This document shows, piece after piece, positions 16,859 through 27,957 of a stretch of DNA of 64,000 nucleotides. A program made the translations under genes and the position numbers. How positions within the stretch are numbered: position 1 is the first letter of the stretch; each line of letters starts with the position of its first letter. The notes under the pieces are model-generated. The model searched no databases. It was not told the origin of the DNA and saw only the letters and a list, made by a program, of their open reading frames with translations. The DNA is from Candidatus Kryptoniota bacterium (lineage in GTDB: Bacteria; Bacteroidota; Ignavibacteria; Kryptoniales; JAKASW01), in NCBI GenBank assembly GCA_024641705.1, contig JAHECO010000014.1:1-64000 (forward strand). The letters are read 5' to 3'.

Positions 16859-18877
16859 ATGGTAAACAAATTCAAGCTTGTGTCTGAGTATAAGCCATCC
16901 GGCGATCAACCTGGGGCTATTCGTGAACTGACGGAAGGTCTGGCAGGCGGTCGTGCCTTTCAGACACTCCTCGGCGTGACGGGGAGCGGCAAGACCTACA
17001 CGATGGCGCAGGTGATCCAGGACGTCAATAAGCCGACGCTTGTAATTTCGCACAACAAGACCCTCGCGGCGCAGCTCTACGGCGAATTCAAACAACTTTT
17101 TCCCCAGAACGTGGTCGAGTTTTTTATTTCCTACTACGACTACTACCAGCCTGAAGCTTACATCCCGCAGACAGATACGTATATAGAGAAGGACTCATCC
17201 ATTAACGACGAGATCGACAGGCTTCGTCTGCGCGCGACGAGTTCCCTCCTGAGCGGAAGGAGCGACGTGCTTGTGGTCGCCTCGGTTTCTTGCATTTACG
17301 GCATCGGCTCGCCCCACGACTACAAGAACGAAATGGTCCTTATACGCAAGGGGGAGAAGATGGGGCGGCGCCATCTCCAGCAGCTCCTCATCGAAAGCCT
17401 GTACTCAAGGAACGATGTGGAATTTCTCCGCGGTGTGTTCAGAGTGCGGGGCGACGTGGTCGAGATTTTCCCGGCCTATGAGCTTGACGAGGCCGTGAGG
17501 GTTGAATTCTTCGGGGACGAGATAGAGTCGATCAAGACGTTCGATCCCCTGACCGGCGTGCCGGCACTGGAGATGGAGGAGGTCGCGATATATCCTGCCA
17601 GGCATTTCGTGACGAGCGAAGAAAACCTCCAGCGCGCCATAGTCGGAATAGAGGCCGAGCTTGTCGAGAGGCTGACCGACCTGCGCGCGATGGGGAAGTA
17701 TCTCGAGGCACAACGGATCGAGCAGCGCACGCGCTTCGATATCGAGATGATGAAGGAAGTCGGCTACTGCAGCGGCATAGAGAACTATTCAAGGCACATC
17801 ACGGGGAGGGAACCTGGTCAGAGACCATATACGCTTCTGGACTACTTCCCAGAGGATTACCTGATGTTCATCGACGAATCTCACCAGACAATCCCGCAAC
17901 TGCGCGCGATGTACCATGGTGACCGTTCCAGGAAGGCGACGCTCGTGGAGTACGGTTTCCGACTCCCGTCGGCTCTTGACAACCGCCCCCTCAAGTTCGA
18001 TGAGTTCGAGACTATGATCAACCAGACTGTCTTTGTCAGCGCCACCCCGTCGGACTATGAACTCGAAAAGAGCAGCGGGGTTATTGTCGAGCAGGTGATA
18101 AGGCCTACAGGCATCGTGGACCCCGAAGTCGAAGTGAGGCCGGTCAAGAACCAGATGGACGATCTCCTTCATGAAATCCGCGGCAGAGTAGAGGCTAAAG
18201 AGCGCACCCTCGTCACTACGTTGACCAAGCGAATGGCGGAAGATCTGACGGAGTACCTCCGCGGGCTCAACATACGCGTGAAGTACATACATTCGGACAT
18301 AGACTCGCTCGAGCGCGTTTCGATCCTTCGCGACCTCCGGCTTGGCGAATTCGATGTGCTTGTCGGAGTGAACCTGTTGCGGGAAGGGCTCGACCTTCCG
18401 GAGGTGTCTCTCGTCGCGATCCTGGATGCCGATAAAGAAGGATTTCTGCGCTCGGAGAAAAGCCTTATACAGACCGCGGGGCGCGCAGCCAGGAACATCG
18501 GGAGCAAGGTCATCCTCTATGCCGACACGATCACCCGCAGCATGAAGAAGATGATGGACGAGACCGAACGGCGAAGGAAGATACAGAGCGATTACAACAC
18601 CGAGCACAACATTAAGCCTAAGTCCATAGTGAAATCGACAGAAGAGATCATGGCCTCGACTGCCATAGCGGATGTCCGTGCGGAGGGCGAAGAGAAGACT
18701 AGACGTCTCCAGCAGGCGAGCGTTTCCGAGTCTCCCGGGAAATACCTGACTGAACAGCAAAAGGGGGACCTTATCCAACGGCTCACGAAGGAGATGTATC
18801 AGGCCGCGAAAGATCTCGAATTCGAGAAGGCTGCGGAGCTGCGCGACGAAATACACAGGTTGTCGGAAAAGAAATGA
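16859..18877 (+). CDS. uvrB: Excinuclease ABC subunit B
   Basis: Nucleotide-excision-repair helicase-like subunit that verifies damage delivered by UvrA and recruits UvrC. At 672 residues it is the usual length. It has Walker A ([12 protein letters not shown]), the beta-hairpin segment [24 protein letters not shown]-like IDESH, helicase motif VI (QTAGRAARN) and a C-terminal UVR domain ending [21 protein letters not shown] upstream of ATG 16859 supports the start. It overlaps the following comF gene by four bases (ATGA), implying translational coupling. Confidence 0.97.
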
Positions 18878-19587
18878 ACGGAATCGTCGCTCTCCGCAAC
18901 GTCGTTGAAGCCTTCGTGAATTTCGTCTACCCTCCTTTTTGTTCGACATGCGGCAGGACCCTGCGGCGCGGCGAAGAGTATGTATGCGCAAGTTGCTGGG
19001 AAAGCTTCGAGCGGGTGCCGCGTACGGAGACAATCATCCAGCTTGTTGAAGAGAAGTTTCTTGCAGACGAGGCGGTGGACGGCATCGACTCGGTTTTTCT
19101 TTTCGAGCAGGATCAGCGCGTCAGGGAGGCAGTCCACCTGCTTAAGTACAACGGCGCGGAGGTGATCGCTGAAAGGTTCGGACTCTTCATCGCGAAGAAG
19201 ATCGTAAACGACTCGAAACTTTCCATGTGTGACACGATCGTACCTGTGCCGCTCCACCCGGCGAGACAGCGTGAGCGCGGCTACAACCAGAGCGAGCTGA
19301 TTACGCGAAGCCTGAGCACGATCCTGGGGATAAGCCACTCGCCTCACTTGCTGATAAGGGTGAGGCAAACGAAAACTCAGACACTCTTCGACGCCGAGGG
19401 GAGACAAAAGAACATAAAGGGAGCCTTTGCGCTGGGGAGAATTAGCCTGGACGATATCGGCGGGAAGAAAGTCCTCCTCGTCGACGATGTCATCACGACC
19501 GGATCTACGATCAAAGAATGTGCGAGAACGTTGAAAATATGCGGAGTATCGGAAGTGTATGCAGCATCTGCGGCAGTTACAATCTGA
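18874..19587 (+). CDS. comF: ComF family phosphoribosyltransferase-like protein
   Basis: The 237-residue protein has an N-terminal zinc-ribbon-like segment (CSTCGRTL and CASCWE) and a phosphoribosyltransferase domain with the PRPP-binding loop [14 protein letters not shown]. The family signature [19 protein letters not shown] is present. ComF proteins are linked to uptake of DNA in competent bacteria and, with PriA, to replication restart; activity here is inferred. It is coupled to uvrB (4-base overlap) and overlaps the next gene by 29 bases, forming a three-gene operon. Confidence 0.85.
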
Positions 19588-19948
19588 GATAGCACGCCAC
19601 ATCAAGGGAGTCGAGAACGTGCACAGCGCGGTGGCCAATCCCGACCGCTTGGCGGAGTTCTATGCCGCTTTGTTCGGTTCTCCCAAGCATCAGGATGGAA
19701 CATGGTCGGAGTTTGAAGTTGCGGACCTGGATATTGCCGTCACTGCCGGGTCATCCGGAAGAAGCGTAATCACTTTCAGGGTGGAGGATCTTCCCAGCTT
19801 ACACTCGCTCCTGGAAGGGGGCGGGTTCCCAGTCACAGGTATTCAGCGCGGCGAGTACGGCGATTACGTGGAACTCTCACCGGGCGAGGGCTTTGTCTTC
19901 CATTTCTTCGAGCCGAAGAAAAAGTGCGGGACACCATCGGGTCGATAG
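19559..19948 (+). CDS. VOC-superfamily (glyoxalase-like) protein
   Basis: A small cytoplasmic protein of 129 residues with one vicinal-oxygen-chelate fold: HSAVANPDRLAEFYAALFGS at the start of the module and EYGDYVELSPGEGFVFHFFE at the end. Related proteins include glyoxalases, dioxygenases and antibiotic-binding proteins; the substrate cannot be predicted. Its first 29 bases overlap the end of comF. A later internal start (GTG 19620, just before HSAV) would also give an intact domain. Confidence 0.65.
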   Translation: MQHLRQLQSEIARHIKGVENVHSAVANPDRLAEFYAALFGSPKHQDGTWSEFEVADLDIAVTAGSSGRSVITFRVEDLPSLHSLLEGGGFPVTGIQRGEYGDYVELSPGEGFVFHFFEPKKKCGTPSGR

Positions 19949-20015
19949 ACTAAGGAGTAAGACTTTGGTTTTGCAGCTGTAGTGGAACCCGTCACAAGAT
20001 TGTTGAAAGTAACGC

Positions 20016-20597
20016 GTGAAAGAACAGCTAGTTAAACTGTTGAATGAAAGTCTTCAGATGGCCTGCGAGTCGGGCCAAACCTTTCAGATTTTCAAAAGAA
20101 GTCTAACCCCTTTCCTGTGGGACCTTGGGATGAAGCTGGATAACTATTCAGAAGAAGGTGGTAGAAATTCATGTGCCCCAAATCGACTTGACAACAAGAA
20201 ACTCACGACGAAAAATCTGGAATTGATTTACCGTACTTTTGGTTCGTTCTATTATGGAGTTCAAAGATTCGCCGCCATGACTGAGAATAGCAGAAGCAGA
20301 CCATATTGGGAATATGATGTTGTAGTCGACCGCAATACTTCAGCCTTATGCAAAACGTTAGTGGACAAGGTCTTCTTGTTCGATAGTCCTTTCTGGGAAA
20401 AATTTTATCCGCCAAATCATCCTGCGTGTAGGGCATTCATTAGAGCATTTACAAAAGAGGAGTTGGATGGCCGCAACTTAACGATCTGCGACGGATCAGG
20501 TATTATTCATCCGCATCCAAGGTGGGCGTTCAATCCCGGAAGAACTAACTGGAAAGCGTTCTTTGACAACCTTGTTATCAAAACTCTCGGCCTGTAA
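20016..20597 (+). CDS. Mu-F/SPP1-gp7-like phage head protein, N-terminally truncated
   Basis: A 193-residue protein from GTG 20016. LNESLQMACESGQTFQIFKR matches the region preceding the Mu F minor-head domain, and ELIYRTFGSFYYGVQRFAAM with RPYWEYDVVVD resembles its helical core. The ending KVFLFDSPFWEKFYPPNHPA, CRAFIRAF and WAFNPG is the family's conserved tail. Full-length Mu F is about 400 residues and sits in a packaging/head operon; here the N-terminal half and all other phage genes are missing. The base composition is visibly AT-richer than its neighbours. It is probably a prophage remnant, though a domesticated protein is possible. Confidence 0.7.
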   Translation: MKEQLVKLLNESLQMACESGQTFQIFKRSLTPFLWDLGMKLDNYSEEGGRNSCAPNRLDNKKLTTKNLELIYRTFGSFYYGVQRFAAMTENSRSRPYWEYDVVVDRNTSALCKTLVDKVFLFDSPFWEKFYPPNHPACRAFIRAFTKEELDGRNLTICDGSGIIHPHPRWAFNPGRTNWKAFFDNLVIKTLGL

Positions 20598-20767
20598 TCC
20601 CGCTTCTTACAACTCTCATTCTTGTATAACGTTTCTTCCCGATGCTATCGGGTGACGGAACCGATGCGGTGCCACTGGGCCATGAAAGTTAACATCAGCA
20701 ATTCCCCTTGCTTGTTCGTATATTTCATTAAACTTATGACAACTAACTATAAAATCCTCGCCGCCAC

Positions 20768-22768
20768 ATGGATCCAACCCAGATAGCGTTCACTTTTCCT
20801 GTATCAGATGAGCCAACGGTACAGCTGGCCGATACGGTTCCGATAGATACTTTTTTTCCGGAAGAGGAAGCAAACACGCTCGCTGAAATAGAATCATTCA
20901 ACAAGCATCTGTTCAGACCGAATACTTATCTGCATAAATGGTGGGCTCGGCGTTCGGGCACTACTTTCCGGTATATATTGAAGCAGCTTGTTCCCAATCT
21001 TTCAAAGAGGGATTACTATGTCCCCGGGGGACTTGAAGGAGTCACAATTCTCGACCCGATGATGGGCGGGGGAACCACGCTGCACGAGGCGATCCGGCTT
21101 GGCGCCAACGTCATCGGCTATGACATCGACCCTATCCCGGTTTTGCAGGCGAAGGCATCTCTGGCTAACCTTCCACTCTCCGAAAAAGTCAGGGTCTTTC
21201 GTCCCTTTCAGAGCGCCTTGGCTAAAGGCATTTCGAAGTACTATAAGACTGCTTGCCCCACATGCGGCGGCACAGCCGAGATTCAATTCACGCTTTATGG
21301 GCAGCGAAAGAAAAGCCCAGACGGTGAAGTCGTCGTCGTAGACTCATTTACGTTGCGGGAGGAACCTGACGACACTCACAAGAGTCTTGAGGATTTCTAT
21401 CCTTCGCTGGAACTCTCCGTAAAAGGGCATTCCGTGCCGATTATCGATAGAGAAAGGGCGCATAAGCAGGGTATCAACGGGAAGTCGTCGGATATTCTCT
21501 CCATTCCATTTGCGGAACGCTATGTTCCATTAGTGATTGTCGGTTTCTGTGACGTTCACAAGAGTTTCTTTAAGAAGGTCGATCCTGCCGACTACGATTC
21601 CATCAAAACGGCGGCGCGCTGGGCAACGAGAAATGCAAGATTCTCTCCGCAAGATTTTGAGGTACCTCAGGGACCAAAGTCGCGCGATCTTATTAACAGG
21701 GACATCCATCATTTCTATGAACTCTTCTTCCCTCGTCAACTCGCGTATATCGCACAATCACATGCAGTCCTGCAGACTGTTCCCCGGGAGCATATGCTCT
21801 GGCTGGCATTGCTTCTGTCCACGTCCCTTGAATTCAATTCTGCGTTGTGCGGTTACAAAGGCGCTGCGAAGAGGAGACCCGGTGCGATCAGGCACGTCTT
21901 CTCTCACCATGCGTATTCGTTTCCCTATACCGCGTTGGAGAATAATCCCGTCTTCTCCCGAAGCACGTCGGGCACTCTCAACAATCTCTTCGAGAGCCGT
22001 ATCGTGTCAGCAGGGAAGTGGGCGAGAGAACCTATTGAGAGACAGTTTGTCAATAGAACGTGGGCAAAAGCACCTATCCCGAGTGAAGTCGACATCGGAC
22101 AGGAAGTCTCTTCTCTCGACGAATTCATCGGTAAGAGAAGGATGTATCTCGTTGCTCAGAATGATTCAACCCGCATATCGCTCCCTTCCGAATCGGTAGA
22201 TTTCGTAGTAACTGATCCGCCGTATTTCAACAATGTTCAGTACAGCGATCTCTCGCATTTTTTTCGCTGTTGGCTCAAGACTTTCTTACCAGAACAAGCC
22301 AGATGGCAGTATGCAGCGCAGGATTCCGCTGTTGCAGAATCTTCCCAGAACGAGGAAAAGTTCGGCTCTGTCATAGGCAGCATCTGGAAGGAGTGTAATC
22401 GAGTACTCAAGCGTCCGCACGGCCGTCTAATTTTTACTTATCACCACTGGAGGCCCCGCGCTTGGGCTCAACTGACCATAGCCTTACAGAAGGCCGGTTT
22501 TCTTCTGGCAAATGCCTTTGTTGTACATTCCGAGAATCCTATATCTGTGCACATCATGAACCTGCGGTCCTTGAAACATGATGCCATACTGGTGCTGAAG
22601 CCGAGGAACGGCCGTGAGCCTCTTCAGTGGGAGAAGCCAGAGCCGATTGTTGATTTCGACAGTTACTCATTTTGTCAGGCATGCGGCCAAATGACGGGAT
22701 GGATACTCCAAAACGACCTATCTGACCCAGAGATTGAGAAAGCCTGGGTTTCTTTCATGAAAGGGTGA
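20768..22768 (+). CDS. DNA methyltransferase (DUF1156/COG1743-like, DPPY type)
   Basis: This 666-residue SAM-dependent DNA methylase has motif I (LDPMMGGGTTLHEA, Asp96) with GYDIDPIP following. A long target-recognition/zinc-ribbon insert (CPTCGG near 160) comes next, then the catalytic DPPY motif (VTDPPYFNNVQYSDLSHFFR, Asp483) and a second Cys pair near the end (CQACG). Motif I before DPPY fits amino-methylating enzymes acting on adenine or the cytosine N4 position. The NotI-like restriction gene starts 3 bases after the stop, so this is the methylase of a type II restriction-modification pair. Composition suggests horizontal acquisition. Confidence 0.85.
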   Translation: MDPTQIAFTFPVSDEPTVQLADTVPIDTFFPEEEANTLAEIESFNKHLFRPNTYLHKWWARRSGTTFRYILKQLVPNLSKRDYYVPGGLEGVTILDPMMGGGTTLHEAIRLGANVIGYDIDPIPVLQAKASLANLPLSEKVRVFRPFQSALAKGISKYYKTACPTCGGTAEIQFTLYGQRKKSPDGEVVVVDSFTLREEPDDTHKSLEDFYPSLELSVKGHSVPIIDRERAHKQGINGKSSDILSIPFAERYVPLVIVGFCDVHKSFFKKVDPADYDSIKTAARWATRNARFSPQDFEVPQGPKSRDLINRDIHHFYELFFPRQLAYIAQSHAVLQTVPREHMLWLALLLSTSLEFNSALCGYKGAAKRRPGAIRHVFSHHAYSFPYTALENNPVFSRSTSGTLNNLFESRIVSAGKWAREPIERQFVNRTWAKAPIPSEVDIGQEVSSLDEFIGKRRMYLVAQNDSTRISLPSESVDFVVTDPPYFNNVQYSDLSHFFRCWLKTFLPEQARWQYAAQDSAVAESSQNEEKFGSVIGSIWKECNRVLKRPHGRLIFTYHHWRPRAWAQLTIALQKAGFLLANAFVVHSENPISVHIMNLRSLKHDAILVLKPRNGREPLQWEKPEPIVDFDSYSFCQACGQMTGWILQNDLSDPEIEKAWVSFMKG

Positions 22769-22771
22769 ACG

Positions 22772-23565
22772 ATGTCGAAATACCCATCTGAAATCTTTGG
22801 ATATCACTGGGAGAATACTTCCCGTGTTGCGGCGACAGCGAGACAGAAATATCGCTGTCCCTTTGTTGGAAAGGAGTGCTACAAAAAGAGTCGCCTCGTT
22901 GACTATCCCTTTGGTGTCTGCTCTGCCCATGTGGATCAGGATGACATAGCTCTTTGCCCGCGACGGTTTCTGGAGAGTCATACTGTCTTTCAAGACATAG
23001 CCAAAGTCCATTTCGGCACCATCGACAACATTTTGATCTTCAGCGAGGTTGGCTTACAAGGCATAGGTAACTTCGATTTTGTGATGGTTAAACATAAGCC
23101 CATGAGCGATGTGGTGGAAGATTTTGCCGCTATAGAATTTCAGACTGGTCAGACCACAAGCACGGGGAAGCTCGTGGAAGGCTTCACCGATTTTATGAAG
23201 AATCGCACATTCCGGAGCGGCGCCACCTACAATTTCGGCATCAATTATTATGACATATGTATGACATATGGAAGAGAACGTTTACCCAAGTCCTTAATAA
23301 GGGAATAATCCTGGAGAAGTGGAACCGCAAAATATTCTGGGTCATCCAACAACCTGTGTTCGATTATTTTTCGAATAAATACCGTCTTGGAAAACTCAAT
23401 TATAACAAGAAGCACTCATCAGTTTTTATGACTTATGACCTCCAGCCTTTGGGAGCCGATCTTCACTTGAAACTTACTGATATGGTCTCATCAACGGTAG
23501 ACAATCTTTTCGATGCTTTCAGAAAAAACGACGATATTCCTCCTGTAGAGAAATTTGTTGAATGA
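22772..23565 (+). pseudogene. NotI-family restriction endonuclease, frameshifted
   Basis: The first frame (22772-23308, 178 residues) has the NotI-like cysteine set Cys29, Cys36, Cys50, Cys62 (CPF...LCPRR), known in NotI to bind iron, and a PD-(D/E)xK-type core GIGNFDFV (Asp102) with AAIEFQTGQTT (Glu122, Gln124). The frame is lost after YNFGINYYDI. The C-terminal part continues in the next frame (from about 23257 to 23565: WKRTFTQVLNKGIILEKWNR). The break coincides with a perfect 11-bp tandem duplication (23249-23270); removing one copy restores one frame of 260 residues. A further 45 coding-like codons follow an in-frame TGA at 23563. The enzyme is probably inactive here. Confidence 0.8.
23249..23270 (+). 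repeat. 11-bp tandem duplication inside the NotI-like gene
   Basis: TATGACATATG occurs twice head to tail (23249-23259 and 23260-23270). Its length is not a multiple of three, so it shifts the reading frame. Deleting one unit joins ...NYYDI to WKRTFT... seamlessly, showing that the ancestral gene had one unit. Confidence 0.92.
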
Positions 23566-23890
23566 CTTCAGGATAAAGTGAACTCGGAGATTAAGTCAAG
23601 TGTTCAACTTGACATCGCTGGGCATCCATCGCACCTTGATGTTTCCGGACCAACTGATTCCGGCAGGACGAAGGAAGACAGAATGGAATACAAAGATGAA
23701 TAGACTCGCGTTCTTACGGGAGGCTACGGCACTTGTGCATGACAGTGGATGGTTGCGAGTCAAACCGCTCTCCAGGTCAAAATACGTCCCACCAACAATG
23801 CGGGCCATTTCCTTCAACCGACGGAAAAGCATGAAAGTCCGGCTCGCTGACAGGCTTTGGAAATTCTGAATACAGTCTTTAAACTACTCT
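23566..23890. other. Degenerate region after the restriction gene
   Basis: In the frame of the NotI-like C-terminus, codons continue past TGA 23563 as LQDKVNSEIKSSVQLDIAG and stop at TAG 23701, which looks like a former C-terminal extension. From 23704 to 23890 no convincing gene is seen; an 89-codon open frame at 23600-23869 has no recognisable features. Confidence 0.4.
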
Positions 23891-24883
23891 ATGAAAAGAT
23901 CCGCCATTTTGCTTCTGGTAATGTTGACGATGAGTTCTTGTTCGCGCAATTCGAAGAAGGAGCAAGCGCAGCAAATGCAGGGGAGTGAAGGGCAGCAGGT
24001 TTCTAAATTGCAGATGGTACCTGTCCCGAAGTTCGACCCGGAATCTGCGTTCGGGTATCTTGTTCGGCAGGTCGATTTCGGACCGCGCGCTCCCAACACC
24101 GGCGCGCACGAACAGTGCCTTGCCTATCTTCAGCAGCAGTTGACGATGTATGCCGATTCGGTCAGGTTGCAGAGATTCGATGTCCCGGGTTACGACGGCG
24201 TCGTCCTCCACCTCACCAACATAATTGCGCATTTCAATCTCAAGTCGAAAACCCGGATCCTGCTGACCGCCCACTGGGACAGCAGGCCCCGGGCAGACCA
24301 GCAGCCGGGCGGTCCCGTGGACAAACCGATCCCTGCCGCGGATGACGGTGCAAGCGGTGTCGCCGTCCTTCTGGAGATGGCACGGGGATTCAAAGAGTCG
24401 CTGCCGCCGGTCGGCGTGGATATTATCCTTTGGGACGGCGAGGACTACGGCAGGGAAGGAGACATGAATTATTATTGTCTCGGTTCAAAATACTGGGCAG
24501 CGACGAAGGAGTTTTCATACCAGCCGCTCTTCGCGATCAACCTCGACATGATCGGACAGAAAGGCCTCAAGATCCCGAAGGAGGGATATTCGGTTCAGTA
24601 CGCCCCTGATGTCGTCGATCTGATCTGGACCACCGCGGCAGATATGGCCGTGCCACAGTTTGTCGACAGGACAAGCGACCCGATTTACGACGATCACCTG
24701 CAGCTCGACAACGTCGGGATCAAAGCGGTCGATCTCATAGATTTCGACTACAAGTACTGGCATACTCTTCAGGACACCCCCGATAAGTGCAGTCCGGAAA
24801 GTCTCGCCGCCGTCGGGCATGTGCTTTTGCAGGTTATTTACAGGAGTTTAAACACTTACCCGTATTTCCGCTATGAAAGATAA
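23891..24883 (+). CDS. M28 family zinc peptidase / glutaminyl cyclase-like lipoprotein
   Basis: This 330-residue exported protein has a lipoprotein leader (MKRSAILLLVMLTMSSC, Cys17). The M28 fold is shown by its zinc ligands in order: ILLTAHWDSRP (His, Asp), AADDGASGVAVLLE (bridging Asp), WDGEDYG (Glu), AINLDMIG (Asp) and YWHTLQDTPD (His). The sequence is closest in style to bacterial glutaminyl-peptide cyclotransferases, which cyclise N-terminal glutamine, but aminopeptidase activity is equally possible. It is anchored in the outer or inner membrane facing the periplasm. Its end overlaps the prmA start by 11 bases. Base composition returns to that of the main chromosome here. Confidence 0.85.
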   Translation: MKRSAILLLVMLTMSSCSRNSKKEQAQQMQGSEGQQVSKLQMVPVPKFDPESAFGYLVRQVDFGPRAPNTGAHEQCLAYLQQQLTMYADSVRLQRFDVPGYDGVVLHLTNIIAHFNLKSKTRILLTAHWDSRPRADQQPGGPVDKPIPAADDGASGVAVLLEMARGFKESLPPVGVDIILWDGEDYGREGDMNYYCLGSKYWAATKEFSYQPLFAINLDMIGQKGLKIPKEGYSVQYAPDVVDLIWTTAADMAVPQFVDRTSDPIYDDHLQLDNVGIKAVDLIDFDYKYWHTLQDTPDKCSPESLAAVGHVLLQVIYRSLNTYPYFRYER

Positions 24884-25724
24884 ATTCTTCCAGCTATCAG
24901 TCTCGGCGGACAAGCCGGTCAACGATCTTGTCATCGGGTTTCTCAGCGACGTCGGAGCGGAGGGCTTCATTGAGGAAGAGAGCGAGTTGAAATGCTACTT
25001 CGCCGAGAGCAAGTGGAAACCGGAATACCGGACGGATGTCATGAGGTTTCTTGGACACCTGAAAGAGGAAGGAAAGATCGGAAGTTTCTCGGTAGATGTC
25101 TCCGAGATCATGAACCAGGATTGGAACACGAAATGGGAAGAATCCATCGTCCCGGTCGACGTAACGGATAACATAGCGATAAAGCCGAGCTGGAAAGAGT
25201 ACAACGGCAACGCGAAGATAGTGATCGAAATTGACCCGAAGATGTCGTTCGGCACGGGACATCACGAAACGACGCGAATGATGATACGACTGCTGGAGAA
25301 GCACGTCAGGGGAGGCGAGAAGATACTTGACGTGGGCACCGGGACGGGCGTGCTGGCGATCGCCGCCGTGAAGCTGGGAGCGGCTCGCTGCGTCGCGGTC
25401 GACAGGGACGAATGGTCGATCGAAAACTCCCTCGAGAACATCAGAAAGAACGGCGTAGCGGATAAGGTGAATCTTTCACGCGGGGAAGTGGCTTCGGTGG
25501 CGGAGGAGGACTTCGACCTGGTCGTGGCAAACCTGAATCGCAACACGCTCCTCTATATCGAACCTGAGCTCAGGAAACGATGCAGGAGAGGCGGCATCCT
25601 GCTCCTGGCCGGCATTCTCACGCTCGATGAGAGAGACGTCGTCGACTCGTACTCGAAATCCGGTTTCACGCCGCTTGAAACGCTCCACGAGGCGGAGTGG
25701 TCGGCACTCGCCCTGAGAAAATGA
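24873..25724 (+). CDS. prmA: Ribosomal protein L11 methyltransferase
   Basis: This 283-residue SAM-dependent enzyme trimethylates ribosomal protein L11. The N-terminal substrate-recognition domain is followed by IVIEIDPKMSFGTGHHETTR, the PrmA signature, then SAM motif I (ILDVGTGTGVLAIAAVKLGA), and NLNRNTLL in place of the usual NIL motif. ATG 24873 lies inside the end of the M28 gene, and the stop overlaps the ppx start (ATGA), so expression is coupled. Confidence 0.92.
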   Translation: MKDKFFQLSVSADKPVNDLVIGFLSDVGAEGFIEEESELKCYFAESKWKPEYRTDVMRFLGHLKEEGKIGSFSVDVSEIMNQDWNTKWEESIVPVDVTDNIAIKPSWKEYNGNAKIVIEIDPKMSFGTGHHETTRMMIRLLEKHVRGGEKILDVGTGTGVLAIAAVKLGAARCVAVDRDEWSIENSLENIRKNGVADKVNLSRGEVASVAEEDFDLVVANLNRNTLLYIEPELRKRCRRGGILLLAGILTLDERDVVDSYSKSGFTPLETLHEAEWSALALRK

Positions 25725-26647
25725 AGTATGCTTCCATAGACATCGGGACGAACACGATCCTGATGCTCATCGGTGAACTGGACGGGGAATCCTCGATAAT
25801 ACCGATCAGAGATTTTTATGCCGTTCCGCGGATAGGGAAGAGTGTTTCATCCACGGGGGAGCTCGACAGTGGATCGGTATCCCGCGCTCTTGAGGTGCTC
25901 GGCGAATACCGCAAGGCGGCGGAAAACTACGGTGTCAGGAGGATCGTGGCATCTGCGACGAGTGCCGTGCGGGACGCCAGAAACCGCGACGAATTCATAA
26001 AGCTCGCAAGGGAAACGTGCGGAATAGACGTCGAAGTGATCCCGGGTGAACTCGAGGCGCGTCTGGGATTCCTCGGCGCCGTTAGCGGAATGTCCGATAA
26101 GTCCCTCTCTTCACTGGTGATCGACATAGGCGGCGGGAGCACAGAGTTCAGCTACGGGATCGGGATGGAACCGAGCCGAATTGCCAGCTTGAGCATCGGC
26201 GCGGTCCGGATTACCGAACTCTTTTTCAGGCATAACCCTCCCTTGCCAGAGGAATTGCAGGCGGCGGCGGATACGGTCGACAAAACGCTCAAGTCTTTTC
26301 CATTTTCCGAGATAAGGCCGGACCGAGTGTTCGCCGTGGCCGGGACGGCGACGACTATCGCGCTCATCGCGCAGAAGAAATATGACTTCGATGCCGATGC
26401 CGTCAACAATTTTCGCATGCAGGCCGATTCGCTGGGTGAGGTCTTCGACTTACTGAAAAAGAAAACGCCGGCCGAAATCAGGACTCTTACAAACGCTGCC
26501 GAAGGAAGAGAGGATGTGCTCCTTGCAGGCGCGCTGATACTTATGAAATCCCTGGAAGCGGCGGGGGCACGCGAATTCATCACCACGGACCGCGGACTCC
26601 GGTACGGCTATCTCCTGCACAAGCTTGCGCAGTTGAAAGGGAAATGA
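25721..26647 (+). CDS. ppx: Exopolyphosphatase / pppGpp phosphohydrolase family
   Basis: 308 residues from ATG 25721, chosen because the conserved N-terminus MKYASIDIGTNTILMLIGE starts there; a longer in-frame GTG start at 25697 lies inside prmA. The second phosphate motif VIDIGGGSTEFSYG and AVAGTATTIALIA are present. Members of this ASKHA-fold family degrade polyphosphate or pppGpp. The protein is about the length of the short catalytic-domain form and lacks a C-terminal HD extension. It overlaps prmA and the next gene by four bases each, so it belongs to the prmA-ppx-rsmB operon. Confidence 0.88.
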   Translation: MKYASIDIGTNTILMLIGELDGESSIIPIRDFYAVPRIGKSVSSTGELDSGSVSRALEVLGEYRKAAENYGVRRIVASATSAVRDARNRDEFIKLARETCGIDVEVIPGELEARLGFLGAVSGMSDKSLSSLVIDIGGGSTEFSYGIGMEPSRIASLSIGAVRITELFFRHNPPLPEELQAAADTVDKTLKSFPFSEIRPDRVFAVAGTATTIALIAQKKYDFDADAVNNFRMQADSLGEVFDLLKKKTPAEIRTLTNAAEGREDVLLAGALILMKSLEAAGAREFITTDRGLRYGYLLHKLAQLKGK

Positions 26648-27957
26648 GTACCTCCTCGCTCGCGGGACACACGATAGAGTTGCTGGACCGGGTCGTCAGG
26701 AGCGGTCTCCCCTCGGACAGGGTCGTCCACGATTTTTATAAGGAGCGAAGGTACCTCGGTTCGCACGACAGGCGCTGGATAACGGAGAAGCTCTACGGCA
26801 TCATCAGAAACTTCATCCTGCTGCAGGATATATCCGGGAAATGCACCAACGCCCAGAGCCCGTTTCACACCTTTCTGATCTACGAGATGGCAATTGCCTC
26901 TTCCGGGTGCGAAGAGTTGGATAAGAATTACTCACAGCTGATCGAGACGTACAGGGCGGCGGGGGAGAGGATTGAACTTGAAGAATTGGCCGGCTGTGTC
27001 ACAAAGAGGCTTGAAACTGTGAACTCAGATCCGGCCGCGTCCCATTTGCGGAACTCTTTTCCCGACTTTTTCACGGAACTGCTCCCGGAGAACGTGCGTA
27101 TTGACGCGGTTCCTATAATGACGGCCCTCAACCACGAGGGACGTGTATGCATCCGGGTCGACACGAACAGGATCAAGCGCGACGACGCTGCCCGGGTTTT
27201 CGGCGAAAAGGGAATCGAGACCGGGCTGACGGAATATTCCCCGCTCGGGCTCTACCTCCCCAAGCGGATCAATCTCAACAATGAGCAGCTCTACAAGGAC
27301 GGTCTGATCGAGATACAGGAAGAGGCGAGCCAGATGGTCGGTATCCTCGTCGACCCGAAAGAGGGGGAGACTATTGTCGACGCGTGTGCGGGTGCGGGGG
27401 GTAAGAGCCTTGAGGTCGCCGCGCTTTCTGCGGGGAAGGCCCGCGTGTACGCCCTGGATGTCGATGCCACCCGCCTCAAGAACCTCGGTTCACGTACAAC
27501 GAGGTGCGGCTATACAAACATTACATCGGTGAAAGTATCCGACGCGAATCTGGGGGAAGCAGTGTCGCTGGCAGGCAGCGCGGACAAGGTCATCGTCGAC
27601 GCGCCGTGTTCCGGCAGCGGGACGATCCGCCGCAACCCGGACAAGAAGTTCCGGCTGACGAGGGCCGCTGTCGAGAAGCACGCAAGATATCAGGAGACGA
27701 TTCTGAAACGCTACGCTGATCTTGTCAAAGTGGGAGGTCTTCTGGTATACTCGACCTGCAGCATCTTCTCGGAAGAGAATTTCGGGGTGGTAAACGCGTT
27801 CCTTGCCTCCGACGGTCGCTTCACGCGTGAGGATGTCTCGCTCTACCTGGTGGGAGAGAAGTTTTCAGAAATGATCGATGACGGCTTCCTTGCGATCTAT
27901 CCGCACCGTCATGAAATGGACGGTTTCTTCGCGGCCGTTATGAGACGGGTGAGCTAA
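26644..27957 (+). CDS. rsmB: 16S rRNA m5C methyltransferase, RsmB/NOL1-NOP2-Sun family
   Basis: This 437-residue RNA cytosine-C5 methyltransferase has an N-terminal NusB-like helical region (residues 1-150, SDRVVHDFYKERRYLGSHDR). The catalytic domain has VDACAGAGGKSLEVAALS (SAM motif I), VDAPCSGSGTIRRNPD and YSTCSIFSEEN with the catalytic cysteines. Assignment to RsmB rather than RsmF rests on the N-terminal domain and is likely but not certain. It overlaps ppx by four bases, and its 3' end overlaps the convergent cysteine desulfurase gene by 20 bases. Confidence 0.85.
   Translation: MSTSSLAGHTIELLDRVVRSGLPSDRVVHDFYKERRYLGSHDRRWITEKLYGIIRNFILLQDISGKCTNAQSPFHTFLIYEMAIASSGCEELDKNYSQLIETYRAAGERIELEELAGCVTKRLETVNSDPAASHLRNSFPDFFTELLPENVRIDAVPIMTALNHEGRVCIRVDTNRIKRDDAARVFGEKGIETGLTEYSPLGLYLPKRINLNNEQLYKDGLIEIQEEASQMVGILVDPKEGETIVDACAGAGGKSLEVAALSAGKARVYALDVDATRLKNLGSRTTRCGYTNITSVKVSDANLGEAVSLAGSADKVIVDAPCSGSGTIRRNPDKKFRLTRAAVEKHARYQETILKRYADLVKVGGLLVYSTCSIFSEENFGVVNAFLASDGRFTREDVSLYLVGEKFSEMIDDGFLAIYPHRHEMDGFFAAVMRRVS

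What the first reader, a model, noticed from the sequence alone, without database searches (positions are those of the whole stretch)
23249..23270. 11-bp tandem duplication breaks a NotI-family restriction enzyme
TATGACATATG is present twice in a row, and removing one copy fuses the two frames into one NotI-like protein of 260 residues. The adjacent methyltransferase gene is intact. This is the classic escape route in which the nuclease is lost and the methylase retained. Because it is an exact tandem unit, it could also be a reversible slippage switch.
Basis: partly seen in the sequence, partly recalled or inferred. Interest (0 to 1): 0.72.

Follow-up and report, generated by a model that had tools for sequence, protein, structure and literature searches.

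The report
Broken NotI-like restriction gene, methylase intact
A bacterium carries a DNA-cutting defence enzyme of the NotI family whose gene was recently broken by an 11-letter repeat and also has an early stop, while its partner DNA-marking enzyme stays readable: a clean example of an ordinary kind of decay.

Summary
TATGACATATG stands twice in succession at 23249-23270 and splits a NotI-family (PF12183) restriction gene behind an open 666-codon N6/N4-type DNA methylase gene. A sister genome of the same genus and homologues in other phyla carry the gene unbroken, without the extra 11 bases, directly behind the same methylase. The break lies in a conserved motif just after the catalytic D..ExQ residues. 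The window has a second lesion, TGA at 23563-23565 where the sister has CGA; 45 homologous codons remain open behind it. Amino-acid change has not sped up in the window lineage, so both lesions are recent. Two units of an 11-mer plus a separate nonsense codon fit recent pseudogenisation better than a slippage switch. In 723 kb of this genome it is the only frame-breaking exact tandem duplication of 9 bp or more, so a systematic assembly fault is unlikely; reads could not be checked. Four of 28 related loci (this one included) show a broken nuclease beside an open methylase gene. The kind (R-dead R-M system) is known.

The parts
20768..22768 (+). DNA methylase gene (M), 666 aa, open; N6_N4_Mtase with motif I part near residue 91 and DPPY part near residue 477, weak DUF1156 match
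   Evidence: full-length match to the sister, 552 of 666 identical
22772..23308 (+). first frame of the NotI-like endonuclease gene (R): 162 native codons, then 16 out-of-frame codons and TAA
   Evidence: PF12183 E 4.9e-6, profile 33-152; alignment with homologues
23249..23270 (+). 11-bp exact tandem duplication (TATGACATATG x 2), frameshift
   Evidence: the extra 11 bases are absent from the 4 of 4 homologues aligned as DNA
23257..23565 (+). second frame of R, 102 codons, open to the premature TGA
   Evidence: PF12183 profile 174-209, E 0.01, below the cut-off; 80% identical to the sister over 100 aa
23563..23565 (+). second lesion: in-frame TGA where the sister has CGA
23566..23703 (+). remnant of the R tail, 45 codons still open and homologous, ending in TAG

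Best explanation
A horizontally acquired Type II-like restriction-modification pair (666-aa N6/N4 methylase + NotI-family endonuclease) sits between a VOC-like gene and an M28 peptidase gene. Its endonuclease gene has very recently become a pseudogene: an 11-bp tandem duplication shifts the frame at residue 162, inside a motif conserved through the NotI family, and a nonsense codon removes the C-terminal tail. The methylase gene is still open, so the cell probably still marks its DNA but no longer cuts unmarked DNA. Shown: the two lesions, the homology, the linkage of M and R in homologues, the open M frame, the lack of further decay. Inferred: that the truncated R is inactive, that M is expressed and active, and that the duplication arose by replication slippage.
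For: Repeat and frames; NotI family; intact sister gene and other homologues without the repeat, behind the same methylase; second lesion; break in a motif invariant over 19 homologues; window-only amino-acid changes not raised, R 4 against 8 in 186 columns, M 6 against 8 in 386; empty site in congeners; only frame-breaking tandem duplication in 723 kb; three other loci with broken R beside open M; no second R copy in this genome.
Against: No reads and no second strain of the species. The lack of decay equally fits an allele that is only transiently off. The tail removed by the TGA is variable and may be dispensable. Activity of M and loss of activity of R are not tested.
Confidence: 0.82

Rival explanations
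1. Reversible slippage switch: gain and loss of one 11-bp unit turns restriction off and on while methylation stays on.
For: Exact tandem unit, not a multiple of three, in an R gene without other decay. [quoted passage not shown]
Against: Only two units. With one unit the product would still end at the TGA, short of the homologues. None of the other 27 loci shows this repeat in R by the alignments and repeat scans made, though only some were scanned for repeats. Similar lrp duplications in Xenorhabdus stand under a heading that calls lrp mutations diverse and not reversible (PMC6786866 passages).
Confidence: 0.06
2. Assembly or sequencing artefact in a draft genome; the real gene has one unit.
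For: The genome is a 95-contig assembly; no reads are at hand.
Against: Only frame-breaking exact tandem duplication of 9 bp or more in 722,673 bases; a 22-bp array is far shorter than a read (inference); a second lesion of another kind is present.
Confidence: 0.07
3. The two frames are still expressed as a working split or frameshifted enzyme.
For: The second frame opens with an ATG created by the repeat at 23257, and both parts are conserved.
Against: No purine-rich ribosome-binding sequence before 23257 and no X XXY YYZ slippery heptamer in the overlap 23254-23308; the TGA remains.
Confidence: 0.02
4. Footprint of an excised transposon with an 11-bp target duplication.
For: Some IS4-family elements are recalled to make duplications of about this size (recalled, no call).
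Against: No 8-13-bp direct repeats with inverted ends around the four DDE_Tnp_1 places found in this genome; a weak test on one transposase family.
Confidence: 0.03

Closest known systems
NotI restriction endonuclease (PF12183; PDB 3bvq, 3c25)
   Same: Same family by profile: the Cys-rich N-terminal part, D..ExQ active-site residues at NotI D160, E182, Q184, and the N...KR...Q...K motif.
   Different: Distant (no single-sequence match to the PDB chain); shorter; partner is an N6/N4-type methylase; gene broken here. Recognition site unknown.
Orphan methylases beside degraded restriction genes (Seshasayee et al., as cited in PMC6471742)
   Same: Open methylase gene next to a degraded nuclease gene.
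   Different: Here the loss is recent, with both lesions and an intact sister pair visible. Oliveira et al. (PMC4176335) hold that solitary genes rarely arise this way.
Tandem-duplication phase variation in pneumococcal capsule genes (Waite et al. 2001, cited in PMC2995930)
   Same: Exact tandem duplication inside a reading frame.
   Different: No sign of reversion here, and a second lesion is present. The original paper was not read.

Membership tests
NotI-family restriction endonuclease (PF12183) | profile match above the curated cut-off | tested here: met
   First frame 26.5 bits against cut-off 22; the second frame alone 15.6, below it; intact sister 38.5
NotI-family restriction endonuclease (PF12183) | catalytic D..ExQ residues and Cys motif at NotI positions | tested here: met
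   Invariant in 19 of 19 open homologues; aligned with 3bvq D160/E182/Q184; the window's first frame keeps them. The catalytic role of D160 and E182 is recalled; Q in place of K in NotI is
NotI-family restriction endonuclease (PF12183) | complete reading frame | tested here: not met
   Frameshift at 23249-23270 and TGA at 23563-23565
NotI-family restriction endonuclease (PF12183) | sequence-specific DNA cleavage | not testable with these tools
   needs an assay
R-dead restriction-modification system | linked M and R in relatives | tested here: met
   7 of 7 GTDB loci with readable M (L009, L010, L011, L013, L014, L015, L016) have the same M directly upstream; in L012 M is interrupted by N
R-dead restriction-modification system | M gene open while R is broken | tested here: met
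R-dead restriction-modification system | M active, R inactive | not testable with these tools
   needs a methylome and a restriction assay
Phase-variable (slippage-switched) gene | a change in unit number restores the full product | tested here: not met
   The one-unit frame still stops at TGA 23563-23565 after 260 codons against 306 in the sister; whether 260 residues suffice is unknown
Phase-variable (slippage-switched) gene | unit-number variation within the population or between strains | not testable with these tools
   no reads and no second strain; exact one-unit and two-unit patterns found 0 stretches in viral contigs

The most novel reading that the evidence does not exclude
The duplication is a low-frequency genetic switch that lets this bacterium shed restriction while keeping protective methylation and regain it by loss of one unit, the shortened 260-residue form being still active.
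Probability: 0.05. Interest if true: 0.5.

Novelty: new member of a known kind. Interest (0 to 1): 0.22.

Why it matters
It is a clean, roughly datable snapshot of a methylase left behind when its nuclease dies inside an acquired R-M locus. Published pan-genome work holds this route to be rare (PMC4176335), so well-timed cases are useful. It also corrects the idea that the repeat alone decides whether the enzyme is on or off.

Tried and rejected
Structure: AlphaFold2 on the sister protein with 8 homologues gave mean pLDDT 36, so no fold search was run; sequence profiles were used instead. phmmer of the separate frames against PDB gave no NotI match, nor did the 8-row profile; only the 19-row profile did. 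Viral contigs gave no relative, phage records no match; plasmid records gave 8 distant relatives at under 30% identity, 7 of them annotated as NotI family, not followed further. L012's split methylase looked like a frameshift; it is a scaffold gap of N. TGA as a sense codon was rejected: the methylase, PrmA, Ppx and ComF frames of the window end in TGA. The Rfam scan of 18000-27000 found nothing. Transposon footprint: weak test, nothing found.

Full report
Observation. The sequence at 23249-23270 is TATGACATATG twice without a mismatch. It is the only exact tandem unit of 8 bp or more in the window; Markov shuffles of the window give about 0.02 of 11 bp or more. In 41 stretches of this genome (the window and 40 others, 722,673 bases of 4,619,371) there are 10 exact tandem repeats with units of 9 bp or more; the other 9 have units of 9, 12 or 42 bp, all multiples of three, so this is the only one that would break a frame.

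What is broken. The first frame (22772-23308, 178 aa) matches PF12183 NotI at profile positions 33-152 (E 4.9e-6, above the curated cut-off). The second (23257-23565, 102 aa) matches positions 174-209 (E 0.01, below the cut-off). Both align with one gene in the sister genome G010:C15 / JAJZVO010000034.1, a single frame of 306 codons. Seven more loci from other named metagenome-assembled genomes carry relatives, L010 to L016. In the four homologues aligned as DNA (L009, L010, L011, L015) the extra 11 bases are absent. Of the 12 other genomes of the genus searched, only G010 has a relative.

Second lesion. In the close homologues with complete ends and no deletion (L009, L010, L011, L013, L014, L015) the protein goes on past that point. 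In the window an in-frame TGA stands at 23563-23565 where the sister has CGA, and the 45 codons behind it remain open and homologous up to TAG at 23701-23703. TGA is a normal stop here: the methylase, PrmA, Ppx and ComF frames end in it. The tail varies in length and sequence, so this lesion may be milder than the frameshift; more distant relatives such as L066, L067 and L068 end soon after that point, but keep a short conserved segment that the window would lose.

Where the frame breaks. In a 19-row alignment of open homologues the invariant residues include C29, C36, C50, E92, D102, E122 and Q124 before the break and N158, K164, Q169, K173 and Q189 around and after it (numbers of the sister protein). 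A profile of that alignment matches the NotI structures 3bvq/3c25 (E 1.6e-7 for the whole sequence; the two stretches alone are weak, 0.0039 and 0.76). It puts D102, E122 and Q124 on NotI D160, E182 and Q184, and the motif at the break on NotI's N..NVFKRTFYQM..K. All 19 of 19 match PF12183. So the 178-aa product keeps the catalytic residues but loses a conserved motif and the whole C-terminal part. That it is inactive is inferred.

Partner and place. The 666-aa methylase upstream is open, and 552 of 666 residues match the sister. An open methylase frame precedes R directly in L009, L010, L011, L013, L014, L015 and L016; in L012 it is interrupted by N. The pair is an insertion: in 10 of 12 congeners M28 lies within about 300 nt of ComF or the VOC-like gene (58 nt in G009), against 3.9 kb in the window; in the other two (L038, L039) ComF was not found. 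None of the 12 has M or R at this place. The sister's intact pair lies elsewhere in its genome.

Age. Window against sister: M dN/dS 0.08 (dS 1.18); R before the break 0.05 (dS 2.2); R after the break has saturated dS. In 186 columns where three outgroups agree, the window alone changed 4 times and the sister alone 8 times in R; in M 6 and 8 times in 386 columns. Neutral drift of 0.05 substitutions per site after the loss would add about 20 window-only changes in R (P of 4 or fewer printed as 0.0000), 0.02 about 8 (P 0.085). The loss is therefore recent on this scale, and one extra stop is not unexpected at 0.01-0.02 (mean 0.34-0.77 stops). The order of the two lesions is unknown.

How common R loss is here. 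I judged 28 loci by open frames: 19 R genes open over most of the model, 2 cut by a contig end (L012, G032), 2 divergent single frames with partial matches (G050, G111), 5 broken. Broken: the window; L016 (in-frame loss of about model positions 155-220); G347 (two frames); G335 (positions about 33-167 missing); G010:C17 (first 37 positions only). In the first four the neighbouring methylase is open; in G010:C17 it is in pieces too. No open R with broken M was seen, but in five of the 19 loci with open R (L072, L073, L074, L076, L077) the methylase was not identified, in L067 it runs off the stretch, and many of the genomes are drafts in which single breaks could be errors. G347 and G335 show no exact tandem repeat in the gene.

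Rivals. A slippage switch should restore the product when one unit is lost; here the product would still stop at the TGA. Two units are few: the review PMC4235727 (passages read) grades repeat tracts by copy number. [quoted passage not shown] An artefact is unlikely but not excluded without reads. Split or frameshifted expression lacks a ribosome-binding sequence and a slippery heptamer. A transposon footprint got a weak negative test.

Known kind. Methylases next to degraded nuclease genes are already described (Seshasayee et al. as cited in PMC6471742, passages); Oliveira et al. hold that solitary genes rarely arise from degradation (PMC4176335, abstract and passages). Seven literature searches were run. 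One search, which combined duplication, frameshift, reversion, restriction and phase-variation terms, listed one paper, on meningococcal microevolution by its title (search listing only). The finding is a clean, recent example of an ordinary process, so the score is low.

Noticed in passing
window 20016-20597 (+): A 193-aa frame matching Phage_Mu_F (PF04233, E 1.4e-10) lies in the same insertion, upstream of the methylase; no match to it was seen among the frames of L009-L016, so it is not a fixed part of the R-M pair. It may be a remnant of a mobile element.
   Followed up: partly
L042 3885-6695 (G010:C17): The sister genome holds a second, dead copy of this R-M pair: methylase in several frames and only the first 37 model positions of R. 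An ORF that looks like a transposase lies nearby (my reading of the translation, no family search).
   Followed up: partly
L016 5992-6717: A Syntrophobacterales homologue lost about 65 residues of R in frame, starting near the place where the window is broken; its methylase is open.
   Followed up: partly
L071 1036-3040 and L065 3221-5637: A second methylase type (528-530 aa) accompanies NotI-like genes in this class; in L065 (G270) R is open, in L071 (G335) R has lost its middle while the methylase stays open.
   Followed up: partly
G000 contigs C53, C9, C49, C89, loci L127-L132: Search with PF01555 gave 10 matches in this genome (8 over the cut-off, two of these in the window's methylase), so it carries several other N6/N4-type methylases.
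   Followed up: no
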